A program made the translations under genes and the position numbers. This document shows, piece after piece, positions 46,439 to 60,460 of a stretch of 64,000 bases of DNA; the first letter of the stretch is position 1, and every line of letters starts with the position of its first letter. This DNA is from Bolinopsis microptera (Eukaryota > Ctenophora > Tentaculata > Lobata > Bolinopsidae), in assembly GCF_026151205.1 (NCBI RefSeq), contig NC_087080.1, positions 16,467,337 to 16,531,336 on the forward strand, written 5' to 3'. Under the pieces are notes generated by a model. The model did no database searches. It was not told the DNA's origin and worked only from the letters and a program-made list of their open reading frames with translations.

Positions 46439-47755
46439 TAGTGTGGTTGGTTTTATCCGATTTTTTTAGATTTTTATGGAGGTTGTACCATTGTAAAACT
46501 TACATTGTGACAGTATAGATGGCGAAATATTTTTGAAAATGGTCCTAACACAGCTTTGATCGTAACAATAACATTGGGTGAATAGATTGGGTGAACAAAC
46601 TATGAAGCAGGCAATTATATGTGCTCATCCATCATTCTGCATATGTAAGCTCAGTAGTTTAATTGCTGATTCATACTCAATGGTGAATCGATAGAATTCA
46701 TGTGTCGGAGATCTCGTGAGAACACCTTTTAATAATTATAGCCCTCAGGATCGCATTATCCCGATCCGGCCGTAATGTGTATTGAGGTATGCACTAATTG
46801 TAGTGGTGAACGGTTGCAGCTCAGGCTATGTTTCAGTATAACTATATATCAGAGATCGCAGTATATTTACACATTACATTCTACTCGGATTGCAGATTGA
46901 AATATTTTCCTGTTGGAACCATGACACATGCATGGGAATACCAAAATATTAATTGTAGTTGTACAACTAATATGATCAATAATTAATAACGGCAACGCTA
47001 ATTTGTCCTTATTGGACTTTATTTTTACGGACATAAGTTAATAGTTGCTGCAAATGCCAAATGCTACAACTACAAGTTAAGCCCTATAAGCGTTCATTTT
47101 AATGTCCGTTCATTTCAATTTTAATATCCGTTCGAATATTGGCGGACGTTTTAAATTGTAATTAAATAGACCATTGAGCGGTCGCGTTTATTTTAATGTC
47201 CGCTCAAAATTATTCCCGTTCACATTATTTCCGGTTGCAGTACGGGTAAAATAACGTCCGAATAAAGCTATCCGATAAGCTCAGGCAGAGCTTTCGGACT
47301 GCGTAAAACTAAACAACTTGAAACGTTGAAGAACGCCGTTAAGGCGGCGCTCAAATTGCATGATCAATTACGGACATAAGTTAATAGTTGCAAATGCCAG
47401 ATGCTACAAGTTAAGCACTAGCGTTCATTTTAATGTCCGTTTATTTTAATATCCGTTCGAATTTTGGCGGACGTTTTAAATTGTTAGTAAATAGAGCATT
47501 GAGCGGTCACGTTTATTTTAATGTCCTCTCAAAATTATGGCTACGCCCGTTCACATTATTTCCGGTTGCGGTACGGGTAAAATAACGTCCGAATAAAGCT
47601 ATCCGATAAACTCAGGCAGAGCTTTCGGACTGTAAAACTGGACAACTTGAAATGTTGAAGAACGCCGTTAAGACATCTGTTGTTGACTCACCTAAAACAC
47701 AAACATACAGTTCAATGGCGAAGAATTCACAGCCAAAGCTGAGCAAGTCATAAGC

Positions 47756-47998
47756 TTGGAAACGCTCAAAAGCGTAGTAAAACGTGTTGTTGAGGAAGAG
47801 GACCGCAGTCGCAACGTCATTGTATTTGGTCCGTCACAAGGGAGCGAGATATATAGAGAACTTATTGACACAGTTAGCGAGATTTTTCAAAACATTGGAC
47901 AGAAACCGAAGATTGTTGAAGCGTGCAGAATTGTCACGAAATCTAAGGACAATTCAGTTACAGCATCATTAATAAGTGAGCTTACGTTATTCGTTTAG
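47756..47998 (+). pseudogene. LINE ORF1-like fragment inside the left arm
   Basis: About 80 codons containing VVKRVVEEEDRSRNVIVFG, EIFQNIGQKPKIVEACRI and then a stop at the microsatellite. The RNVIVFG...KPKI pattern resembles the RRM-like core of ORF1 proteins of non-LTR retrotransposons. An upstream ATG at 47715 is in another frame. The right arm holds inverted copies, at 58228-57986 and, broken, at about 59580-59240. It looks like captured sequence carried as part of the arm. Confidence 0.45.
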
Positions 47999-48000
47999 GT

Positions 48001-48240
48001 CTGTCTGTCTGTCTGTCTGTCTGTCTGTCTGTCTGTCTGTCTGTCTGTCTGTCTGTCTGTCTGTCTGTCTGTCTGTCTGTCTGTCTGTCTGTCTGTCTGT
48101 CTGTCTGTCTGTCTGTCTGTCTGTCTGTCTGTCTGTCTGTCTGTCTGTCTGTCTGTCTGTCTGTCTGTCTGTCTGTCTGTCTGTCTGTCTGTCTGTCTGT
48201 CTGTCTGTCTGTCTGTCTGTCTGTCTGTCTGTCTGTCTGT
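48001..48240. repeat. (CTGT)n microsatellite, left arm
   Basis: Sixty perfect copies (240 bp). The mirror position of the right arm carries (CAGA)n, so the tract is part of the inverted repeat. Confidence 0.98.
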
Positions 48241-56771: not shown

Positions 56772-57064
56772 TAGACTTAAGATTAGTGTAATCTATAAAC
56801 TGAAAGTAGATGTTAATAAACTTTTGATAGATAAGCACTTTTGGAAAATAGTATTACTATTATTATTGAAATACTGTTCTGATAATCAAAGTTTTGCAAA
56901 TAAATGAATTACGAAAAGAGTAGTTTTTAATTTTGTCATAGTATTAGCCAAAAACATGATTATACATTTTTTTGTAGAACATTAGAGCTTCGGTAACACG
57001 TCTGAGGCTCTAATAGCTATCATGAAGTTACCTTGAGAAATGTGTTAAAAGTGTCTTTTGAGCA

Positions 57065-60000
57065 AATTAGCATCATGAGTTATGTTGTTTAATATAATAA
57101 TAAGCCTAGGGGCTATTACATATTAGTATTACAGTCCAAATAGTTTTGAAGCTACTTGTTCGATCCACCGCAAGTTACAAATACATGATTATGACACCCC
57201 ATCATGGGTGGCCAGGTGGCCTGCAGACCCTGGGTAGCACGAATTTTGTCACTAAATGGTAATGCCAGAAAAAATAAATCTATGGGTTCTAATTATTATT
57301 ATTAGTATTAGTATCATAGGTAAATTCTCGTGCTTACTCATTACATAAGAATAATTTATTAGTATAAAAAACGTGATGAATGCAGATTAGCATATAAAAT
57401 TCACATGGCATGACCCAATTCATAATATTAATATTATGTTAATATGTTTCATTACCTATGAAACACTGAAAGTGAAACACATTTAGCATTAAAAACGCCT
57501 AGTAAATATAGAGACTGCCGTAACTCTTACCGTTTTCTTAATTAAGCCGCTCGGAAATTACAGACAGACAGACAGACAGACAGACAGACAGACAGACAGA
57601 CAGACAGACAGACAGACAGACAGACAGACAGACAGACAGACAGACAGACAGACAGACAGACAGACAGACAGACAGACAGACAGACAGACAGACAGACAGA
57701 CAGACAGACAGACAGACAGACAGACAGACAGACAGACAGACAGACAGACAGACAGACAGACAGACAGACAGACAGACAGACAGACAGACAGACAGACAGA
57801 CAGACAGACAGACAGACAGACAGACAGACAGACAGACAGACAGACAGACAGACAGACAGACAGACAGACAGACAGACAGACAGACAGACAGACAGACAGA
57901 CAGACAGACAGACAGACAGACAGACAGACAGACAGACAGACAGACAGACAGACAGACAGACAGACAGACAGACAGACAGACAGACTTAAACGAATAACGT
58001 AAGCTCACTTATTAATGATGCTGTAACTGAATTGTCCTTAGATTTTGTGGCAATTCTGCACGCTTCAACAATCTTCGGTTTCTGTCCAATGTTTTGAAAA
58101 ATCTCGCTAACTGTGTCAATAAGTTCTCTATATATCTCGCTCCCTTGTGACGGACCAAATACAATGACGTTGCGACTGCGGTCCTCTTCCTCAACAACAC
58201 GTTTTACTACGCTTTTGAGCGTTTCCAAGCTTATGACTTGCTCAGCTTTGGCTGTGAATTCTTCGCCATTGAACTGTATGTTTGTGTTTTAGGTGAGTCA
58301 ACAACAGATGTCTTAACGGCGTTCTTCAACATTTCAAGTTGTCCAGTTTTACAGTCCGAAAGCTCTGCCTGAGTTTTTCGGATAGCTTTATTCGGACGTT
58401 ATTTTACCCGTACCGCAACCGGAAATAATGTGAACGGGCGTAGCCATAATTTTGAGAGGACATTAAAATAAACGTGACCGCTCAATGCTCTATTTACTAA
58501 CAATTTAAAACGTCCGCCAAAATTCGAACGGATATTAAAATAAACGGACATTAAAATGAACGCTAGTGCTTAACTTGTAGCATCTGGCATTTGCAACTAT
58601 TAACTTATGTCCGTAATTGATCATGCAATTTGAGCGCCGCCTTAACGGCGTTCTTCAACATTTCAAGTTGTCCAGTTTTACAGTCCGAAAGCTCTGCCTG
58701 AGTTTATCGGATAGCTTTATTCGGACGTTATTTTACCCGTACCGCAACCGGAAATAATGTGAACGGGCGTAGCCATAATTTTGAGAGGACATTAAAATAA
58801 ACGTGACCGCTCAATGCTCTATTTACTAACAATTTAAAACGTCCGCCAAAATTCGAACGGATATTAAAATAAACGGACATTAAAATGAACGCTAGTGCTT
58901 AACTTGTAGCATCTGGCATTTGCAACTATTAACTTATGTCCGTAAAAATAAAGTCCAATAAGGACAAATTAGCGTTATTGATCATGCAATTTGAGCGCCG
59001 CCTGGTAAATATATAAACCGACACAATTAGTATACAGTACAACTACAACAACTGAAAGTCTAAATTGAAGTCGAACATTATTTGTAAAATCGCATGTAGC
59101 ATGATGCCTGCAGGCCTGCTCCTGCTGTACACTGTACAGTACAGTGTACGCAGGCGAGTACAGAATTAGTAAATTAGCGCACGCGGCACAAGGCGGATTT
59201 TATTTATTGGAATCAAATATTTTGCAATAACTTAAACGAATAACGTAATTGCTCATTTATTAATGATGCTGTAACTAAATTGTCCTTAGATTTTCTGGCA
59301 ATTTTGCACGCTTCAACAATCTTCGGTTTCTGTCCAATGTTTTGGAAAATCACGCTAACTGTGTCAATAAGTTCTCTATATATCTCGCTCCCTTGTAACA
59401 GACCAAATACAATGACGTTGCGACTAGACTGCGGTCCTCTTCCTCGACAACACGTTTTACTACGCTTTTGAGCGTTTCCGAGCTTATGACTTGCTCAGTT
59501 GGCTGTGAATTCTTCGCCATTGATCTGTATGTTTGTGTTTTAGGTGAGTTAACAACAGATGTCTTAACGGCGTTCTTCAACGTTTCAAGTTGTTTAGTTT
59601 TACGCAGTCCGAAAGCTCTGCCTGAGCTTATCGGATAGCTTTATTCGGACGTTATTTTACCCGTACTGCAACCGGAAATAATGTGAACGGGAATAATTTT
59701 GAGCGGACATTAAAATAAACGCGACCGCTCAATGGTCTATTTAATTACAATTTAAAACGTCCGCCAATATTCGAACGGATATTAAAATTAAAATGAACGG
59801 ACATTAAAATGAACGCTTATAGGGCTTAACTTGTAGTTGTAGCATTTGGCATTTGCAGCAACTATTAACTTATGTCCGTAAAAATAAAGTCCAATAAGGA
59901 CAAATTAGCGTTGCCGTTATTAATTATTGATCATATTAGTTGTACAACTACAATTAATATTTTGGTATTCCCCTGCATGTGTCATGGTTCCAACAGGAAA

Positions 60001-60460
60001 ATATTTCAATCTGCAATCCGAGTAGAATGTAAATATACTGCGATCTCTGATATATAGTTATACTGAAACATAGCCTGAGCTGCAACCGTTCACCACTACA
60101 ATTAGTGCATACCTCAATACACATTACGGCCGGATCGGGATAATGCGATCCTGAGGGCTATAATTATTAAAAGGTGTTCTCACGAGATCTCCGACACATG
60201 AATTCTATCGATTCACCATTGAGTATGAATCAGCAATTAAACTACTGAGCTTACATATGCAGAATGATGGATGAGCACATATAATTGCCTGCTTCATAGT
60301 TTGTTCACCCAATCTATTCACCCAATGTTATTGTTACGATCAAAGCTGTGTTAGGACCATTTTCAAAAATATTTCGCCATCTATACTGTCACAATGTAAG
60401 TTTTACAATGGTACAACCTCCATAAAAATCTAAAAAAATCGGATAAAACCAACCACACTA
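57065..60460. repeat. Right inverted-repeat arm
   Basis: Pairs with 46439-48690 but is longer. The subterminal block occurs three times, at about 58312-58616, 58642-58946 and 59566-59880, against two in the left arm. An extra segment, 59000-59220, includes a 23-bp palindrome GTACACTGTACAGTACAGTG... around 59130. The arm also holds inverted copies of the ORF1-like fragment. Confidence 0.85.
57561..57985. repeat. (CAGA)n microsatellite, right arm
   Basis: A perfect 425-bp tract, longer than its 240-bp counterpart in the left arm. The 156-codon frame across it is an artefact. Confidence 0.98.

What the first reader, a model, noticed from the sequence alone, without database searches (positions are those of the whole stretch)
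46439..60460. 14-kb DNA transposon with 2-3 kb inverted repeats and an unplaced transposase
An 8-bp duplication, near-identical 0.9-kb outer arms and a single intact gene framed by the arms make a coherent, apparently recent mobile element. End sequence TAGTGTGGTTGG and the 752-aa protein do not fit a superfamily that I can name. It may represent an undescribed DNA-transposon group, and it may still be active.
Basis: partly seen in the sequence, partly recalled or inferred. Interest (0 to 1): 0.92.

Follow-up and report, generated by a model that had tools for sequence, protein, structure and literature searches.

The report
Ctenophore DNA transposon of unnamed group
This is a genuine, multi-copy and recently mobile "jumping gene" in a comb jelly genome, with unusually long mirror-image ends and a cutting enzyme from a large, unnamed animal enzyme family that folds most like hAT transposases.

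Summary
At 46439-60460 lies a DNA transposon of Bolinopsis microptera (ctenophore), flanked by TTGACGAT, with arms of 2.3 and 3.4 kb and an open 11-exon gene of exactly 752 aa. The 14 kb include a 3.4-kb LINE in intron 9 that nine other gene-bearing copies lack.
Its ends recur as inverted pairs. Of 25 pairs read (two end types), 9 have 8-bp and 14 have 9-bp duplications, one is imperfect, one lies in poly-G. Six of 12 copies examined keep an open 752/753-aa frame. Intron mismatches are at most 0.62%. Against a sister subfamily dN/dS is 0.26.
Long ends with 8/9-bp duplications look MULE-like; D2-E spacing (303-346) and fold look hAT-like. Best reading: a cut-and-paste transposon of a distinct group in the CxxH clan (hAT, MULE, P). 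Repbase/Dfam could not be searched, so an existing name is possible.

The parts
46431..46438 (.). left target-site duplication TTGACGAT
60461..60468 (.). right target-site duplication TTGACGAT
46439..60460 (+). whole transposon copy (14,022 bp, of which 3,388 bp are a later LINE)
46439..48730 (+). left inverted arm; outer 905 bp 99.0% identical to the right arm, innermost part about 85%
57024..60460 (-). right inverted arm, with extra diverged module about 59000-59560 and 329-bp tandem unit 58312-58945
47999..48240 (+). (GTCT)60.5 inside the left arm
57560..57985 (-). (ACAG)106.5 inside the right arm, counterpart of the left (GTCT)n
48903..56771 (+). transposase gene, 11 exons (48903-49132, 49424-49619, 49893-50235, 50377-50535, 50749-50858, 50978-51101, 51319-51434, 51637-51873, 52040-52214, 55871-56061, 56394-56771), 752 aa, open
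50377..50535 (+). exon 4: first catalytic Asp (D261, IFFDGK)
50749..50858 (+). exon 5: second catalytic Asp (D337, GGDNTS)
50978..51101 (+). exon 6: CxxH motif (C366, H369)
51637..51873 (+). exon 8: RW motif (R465, W466) of the insertion domain
56394..56771 (+). exon 11: catalytic Glu (E683, PCHSQSVEH)
52432..55819 (-). LINE (endonuclease + reverse transcriptase ORF) inserted in intron 9; duplication CAATATTT at 52424-52431 and 55820-55827; absent from nine other gene-bearing copies

Best explanation
The element is an autonomous cut-and-paste DNA transposon of the ctenophore Bolinopsis microptera. Its 752-aa protein is a DDE (RNase H-fold) transposase with a large helical insertion domain of the hAT type. 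Most likely it binds inside the long composite inverted arms, pairs the two TAGTGTGGTTGG ends, cuts them with D261, D337 and E683 (with H369 and W466 positioning flanking DNA as in Hermes and Muta1), and inserts the excised DNA at a staggered 8- or 9-bp cut, which is filled in to give the duplications. Non-autonomous derivatives with the same ends are moved in trans. Shown: ends, duplications, multiple copies, open gene, conserved residues, related empty sites. Inferred: the enzyme activity, the chemistry of cutting, binding sites in the arms, mobilisation in trans, and present activity. By its mixture of features it is best regarded as a distinct group inside the CxxH clan (hAT, MuDR, P, Kolobok, Dada), nearest to hAT by fold.
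Against: No sequence or profile match to hAT or MULE. The models are of a relative (P0004, 28% identical to the query) and of an NCBI model (P0001) that lacks the N-terminus and the true C-terminus; the full window protein was not folded. For P0001 Foldseek ranks the P element first (2.0e-5) and shows no Hermes row among its 50. Foldseek TM-scores to Hermes are low for P0004 (0.24-0.31 by query length). Activity was not tested. The long arms have no demonstrated role.
Confidence: 0.82

Rival explanations
1. It is a divergent MULE (Mutator-like element) of the Foldback type.
For: Long TIRs and mixed 8/9-bp duplications equal those of Muta1 (PMC5225508, abstract and passages) and resemble the Mutator/Foldback family Tm1 with mostly 9-bp, 8-10-bp duplications (PMC3169594, passages). 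CxxH and W are shared by MULEs and hAT.
Against: No PF10551 match in the spliced protein or in 26 relatives, while PF10551 rings at 88 places of this genome, none within the 25 pairs of ends read (read exon by exon). D2-E spacing is 346 here and 303 in P0004, against 120-214 in arthropod MULE families (PMC13359780, passage). No hhalign match to four MULE ORFs of the same genome (a small alignment).
Confidence: 0.2
2. It is an aberrant hAT element that has gained long TIRs.
For: Best fold match Hermes. D2-E spacing of the hAT size (Hermes numbers recalled). Same spacing around the catalytic Glu: IPGSSAASER in hAT ORF L083 and FPCHTQAVER in the consensus of this family. Ends TAGTG/TAGGG agree with the hAT end consensus as I recall it.
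Against: Duplications of 9 bp in 14 of 25 pairs, TIRs of kilobases instead of 10-25 bp (PMC3942097, passages), no hATC domain although PF05699 rings at 150 places of this genome, none within the 25 pairs (150 of 365 candidates scored). No hhalign match to six hATC ORFs (a weak test).
Confidence: 0.3
3. The inverted arms are an assembly artefact or a one-off segmental inversion, not a transposon.
For: None found; two other copies are interrupted by runs of N.
Against: 14 inverted pairs of this end at different places, 13 with clean duplications, and related empty sites.
Confidence: 0.01
4. It is already named in Repbase/Dfam, so only a new member of a known family.
For: The protein family is common in insects, whose repeats are well catalogued; Repbase could not be searched.
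Against: No Pfam family convincingly matches any of the 26 relatives scanned; none of the 120 listed proteins (of 881) carries a precomputed Pfam domain and the named ones are 'uncharacterized', 'unnamed' or 'hypothetical'. The listings of the ten paper searches showed no description that I recognised.
Confidence: 0.4

Closest known systems
hAT superfamily (Hermes)
   Different: 8/9-bp instead of 8-bp duplications, kilobase TIRs, about 10-kb length, no hATC domain, no sequence-profile match.
MULE / MuDR superfamily (Muta1, Phantom; Foldback-type Tm1)
   Same: Long TIRs with internal repeats, mixed 8- and 9-bp duplications, derivatives without the gene, CxxH and W residues.
   Different: No MULE domain, D2-E spacing 303-346 against 120-214, no profile match to four MULE ORFs of the same genome.
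Rehavkus (MULE-related)
   Same: 9-bp duplications; hosts arthropods and annelids (PMC6446971, table passage) overlap those of the protein family.
   Different: TIRs of kilobases instead of 26-400 bp; no PHD finger found by Pfam.
P element superfamily (incl. Galileo with Foldback-like TIRs)
   Same: Foldseek's first hit for the Bolinopsis model (6p5a, 2.0e-5); CxxH clan; long TIRs in Galileo (PMC3688188, seen in the listing).
   Different: No THAP or P-element Pfam domain found; duplications of 9 bp in most pairs.
IS256 family (ISCth4)
   Different: D2-E spacing 107 (D241, E348; PMC7780238, passages), bacterial.

Membership tests
hAT | 8-bp target-site duplication | tested here: not met
   9 of 25 pairs have 8 bp, 14 have 9 bp, 1 imperfect, 1 in poly-G; definition from PMC3942097
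hAT | short TIRs (10-25 bp) | tested here: not met
   arms 2.3 and 3.4 kb
hAT | hATC dimerisation domain PF05699 | tested here: not met
   positive control 150 places elsewhere in this genome (150 of 365 candidates scored)
hAT | RNase H fold with large helical insertion like Hermes | tested here: met
   model of relative P0004; model of P0001, truncated NCBI form; Foldseek on P0001 ranks the P element first
MULE/MuDR | TIRs over 100 bp and 8-10-bp duplications | tested here: met
   definition from PMC5225508
MULE/MuDR | MULE catalytic domain PF10551 | tested here: not met
   positive control 88 places elsewhere in this genome (exon by exon)
MULE/MuDR | D2-E spacing of about 120-214 | tested here: not met
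   346 here, 303 in P0004; range from PMC13359780
P element | THAP DNA-binding domain and P-element catalytic/GTP-binding domains | tested here: not met
   no such Pfam family at E up to 10 or in 26 relatives
P element | P-element fold | tested here: inconclusive
   Foldseek 2.0e-5 for the P0001 model; not among the 50 entries shown by VIA-align
Rehavkus | PHD finger in the transposase, TIRs 26-400 bp, 9-bp duplications | tested here: not met
   no PHD finger; arms of kilobases; definition from PMC6446971
Dada / Kolobok | 6-7-bp duplications without TIRs (Dada); TTAA duplications (Kolobok, recalled) | tested here: not met
   Dada definition from PMC3706591
new superfamily by the Repbase rule | transposases do not converge with another superfamily in PSI-BLAST at E < 0.005 (PMC4455052) | tested here: inconclusive
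   only weaker stand-ins could be run: profile against PDB sequences, Pfam, hhalign to few MULE/hAT ORFs, all without a match

The most novel reading that the evidence does not exclude
The element is the first anatomically defined member (ends, duplications, copies, gene) of a superfamily-level group of animal DNA transposons. Its enzyme is widespread in arthropods, annelids and ctenophores but unnamed. It joins a hAT-like transposase to MULE/Foldback-like ends, and so marks an intermediate or independent branch of the hAT/MULE/P clan.
Probability: 0.45. Interest if true: 0.75.

Novelty: new variant of a known kind. Interest (0 to 1): 0.58.

Why it matters
A protein family of 881 clusters sits in databases without a domain name. 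This element gives it, in one host, an anatomy and a likely function: a transposase. It also separates traits usually taken as markers of one superfamily: duplication length and TIR length here look like MULE, the enzyme like hAT. That bears on how the CxxH transposases radiated and how duplication length is set. Near-identical copies with open frames make it a candidate active transposon in a ctenophore.

Tried and rejected
Assembly artefact: rejected. Simple hAT or simple MULE: each fails features tested here (see Membership tests). Pfam on the spliced protein: nothing at E up to 10. PDB by sequence: nothing; by profile only a chance hit to mL77 at E 1.1 and 1.6. Structures of P element, RAG1 and Transib are not among the 50 entries shown by VIA-align; that absence proves nothing. 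So TIRs and duplications of the insect relatives remain unknown. The C8 joined-flank search gave no related empty site across the junction. The ORF fragments in the arms have no convincing Pfam match. A first reading of the right-hand flanks in the wrong orientation gave no duplications; one search corrected it. My exon table was one base late at the start codon; the corrected one is, and the percentages are not materially affected.
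Full report
WHERE. The window lies in a held genome of 264.65 Mb (232 contigs) at C9:16467337-16531336. The protein search returned an NCBI model of Bolinopsis microptera, LOC134820989, on a contig of 17,428,893 bases, the length of C9. So the host is a ctenophore.

ANATOMY. The ends read TAGTGTGGTTGG...CCAACCACACTA between two copies of TTGACGAT. The outer arms (905 and 898 bp) are 99.0% identical, with one 7-bp indel; inner parts are 99-100% identical up to a (GTCT)n/(ACAG)n run, and a last part of about 0.5 kb is clearly more diverged (85.5% in an alignment that includes the repeat run). The right arm contains an extra module and a tandem 329-bp unit that the left arm lacks here; in copies such as C2 and C13 the extra module lies on both sides. 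I infer that the arms recombine and homogenise, as in Foldback-type elements. Between them lies one gene: 11 exons, 48903-56771, all introns GT..AG, 752 aa. A LINE with endonuclease and reverse transcriptase domains sits in intron 9 (52432-55819), flanked by CAATATTT; three copies printed across that point have the target once, and none of the nine other gene-bearing copies holds the LINE.

OTHER COPIES. The 435-bp end gave 44 matches (40 of 66 candidates scored): 22 at 98-100% form 11 inverted pairs, six at 93% form three more, and there are further single or more diverged ends. In these 14 pairs the bases outside the ends are duplicated: 8 bp in four, 9 bp in nine, and one imperfect (9 bp with an extra base on one side). 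A sister end, TAGGGTGGATGG, found at a copy on C11 with 75-91% identical protein exons, has 42 matches (40 of 66 candidates scored); of its pairs I read 11: five 8-bp, five 9-bp, one inside poly-G. Altogether 23 of 25 have a clean 8- or 9-bp duplication, in 22 different sequences. Ambiguities: in three of the nine 8-bp cases (window, C3:1.9, C11) a 9-bp reading is possible if the terminal A of the right end is counted as target, and in three of the 9-bp cases (C13, C4, C9:1.4) a 10-bp one (C11 from its printed flanks); C1:10.5 lies in a tandem repeat and C4:2.5 apparently too, where a duplication says less. For the window copy, searching the joined flanks found many copies of a hairpin repeat that begins at the target (40 of 1661 candidates scored); the three that I fetched read GATTGACGATGTCAATCC without interruption, which makes them related empty sites. 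The same test on C8 found none across the junction.

AGE AND SELECTION. Against the window copy, nine gene-bearing copies (two of them only in part) have 0.09-0.49% mismatches in exons and 0.14-0.62% in introns, gaps apart. Of the 12 copies examined (window included; two of the 14 pairs were not fetched), six have an open frame of 752 or 753 aa with intact splice sites (window, C12, C2, C9b, C4, C3a), two are broken, two are interrupted by runs of N and two lack the gene (C8, C1x). Against the sister gene on C11, all 11 exons align (83-97.5% in DNA) and dN/dS is 0.26 over 740 codons; whether the C11 frame is open was not tested. The gene has been selected as a protein and the family moved recently; present activity is not shown.

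HOW IT MOST LIKELY WORKS. Inferred from these homologies: a dimeric or higher-order transposase on the paired ends, double-strand excision with H369 and W466 near the scissile site, and insertion with an 8/9-bp stagger. PMC5225508 (abstract and passages) reports for the MULE Muta1 that D214, D283, E419, H307 and W401 are needed and that it makes 8- or 9-bp duplications, and gives Hermes H268 and W319 as the counterparts. The mixed duplication length here is the same behaviour as in Muta1.

PLACEMENT. By ends it looks like a MULE: long TIRs, 8/9 bp. By enzyme it looks like hAT: fold, and D2-E distance of 303-346 (arthropod MULE families 120-214, PMC13359780, passage; Muta1 136 from its residue numbers). 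The region of the last Glu has the spacing of hAT (IPGSSAASER in L083; FPCHTQAVER in this family). But it fails hAT on duplication length, TIR length (10-25 bp in PMC3942097, passages) and hATC, and fails MULE on domain and spacing. Both models ring elsewhere in the same genome, PF10551 at 88 places (131 of 131 candidates scored) and PF05699 at 150 (150 of 365 scored), and no listed row falls within the 25 pairs of ends; these scans read exon by exon, so the direct test is the spliced protein and the 26 relatives. hhalign against four MULE ORFs and six hATC ORFs of this genome gave nothing, a weak test because those alignments are small. [quoted passage not shown] PMC3706591, passages). I therefore file it as a distinct group within this clan, nearest to hAT by fold, not as a member of hAT or MULE.

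LIMITS. Repbase and Dfam were not available, so an existing name cannot be excluded. The ends of the insect relatives are unknown. Ten papers were opened and seen as abstracts or passages only (PMC12221973, PMC5225508, PMC6446971, PMC7780238, PMC13359780, PMC3169594, PMC10045372, PMC3942097, PMC4455052, PMC3706591); PMC3688188 was seen in a search listing only. Hermes catalytic residue numbers, the hAT end consensus and Kolobok's TTAA are recalled.

Noticed in passing
window 60461-60590 and L053-L055: A hairpin repeat with TTGACGATGTCAATC at its edge is abundant (1661 first-look candidates) and may be a preferred target: the window and C1:15.19 copies have the duplication TTGACGAT, C8 has GTGACGAT, and the flanks of C12 and C1x carry TTGACGATGTCAATT nearby.
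   Followed up: partly
window 47696-47998, 57986-58288, about 59240-59560: Both arms carry ORF fragments of about 100 aa (...RSRNVIVFGPSQGSEIYRELIDTVSEIF...). They resemble LINE ORF1 as I recall it, but have no convincing Pfam match; possibly captured sequence.
   Followed up: partly
G000 C12:4251646, C51:10557, C10:6199059, C4:14206512, C3:17234164, C2:17892237, C1:15577056, C1:15193080: Eight pairs with 94-95% sister ends are only 3.6-5.6 kb long, shorter than the 10.3-kb form on C11 and C7: probably an expanded non-autonomous set; interiors not read.
   Followed up: partly
two pairs with 93% ends: Two pairs are 22 and 25 kb long; their interior was not read, so their cargo is unknown.
   Followed up: no
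P0001 (NCBI LOC134820989): The public gene model lacks the first 97 residues and has a different C-terminus without the catalytic Glu motif; six genomic copies encode the full form.
   Followed up: partly
window 19698-24558: LTR retrotransposon of the Gypsy type (type recalled): zinc knuckle, protease, RT, RNase H and integrase domains.
   Followed up: partly
window 44908-45864: 318-aa ORF with an RNase H domain next to the transposon, probably a LINE remnant.
   Followed up: no
window 1-1622, 8596-10035, 13079-14354, 15135-16237, 25509-26001, 30844-34501: Many minisatellite arrays, for example 46 bp x 35, 58 bp x 25, 30 bp x 37, 53 bp x 69.
   Followed up: no
A2 columns of P0004 residues 120-130: N-terminal CxC(5)CxC motif in 83-84 of 87 relatives, no Pfam name; possibly a zinc-binding DNA-binding domain.
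   Followed up: partly
L082: A fragment of this transposase family (45% identity over 76 residues) on a contig filed as an Anaerolineae MAG, probably eukaryotic contamination.
   Followed up: no
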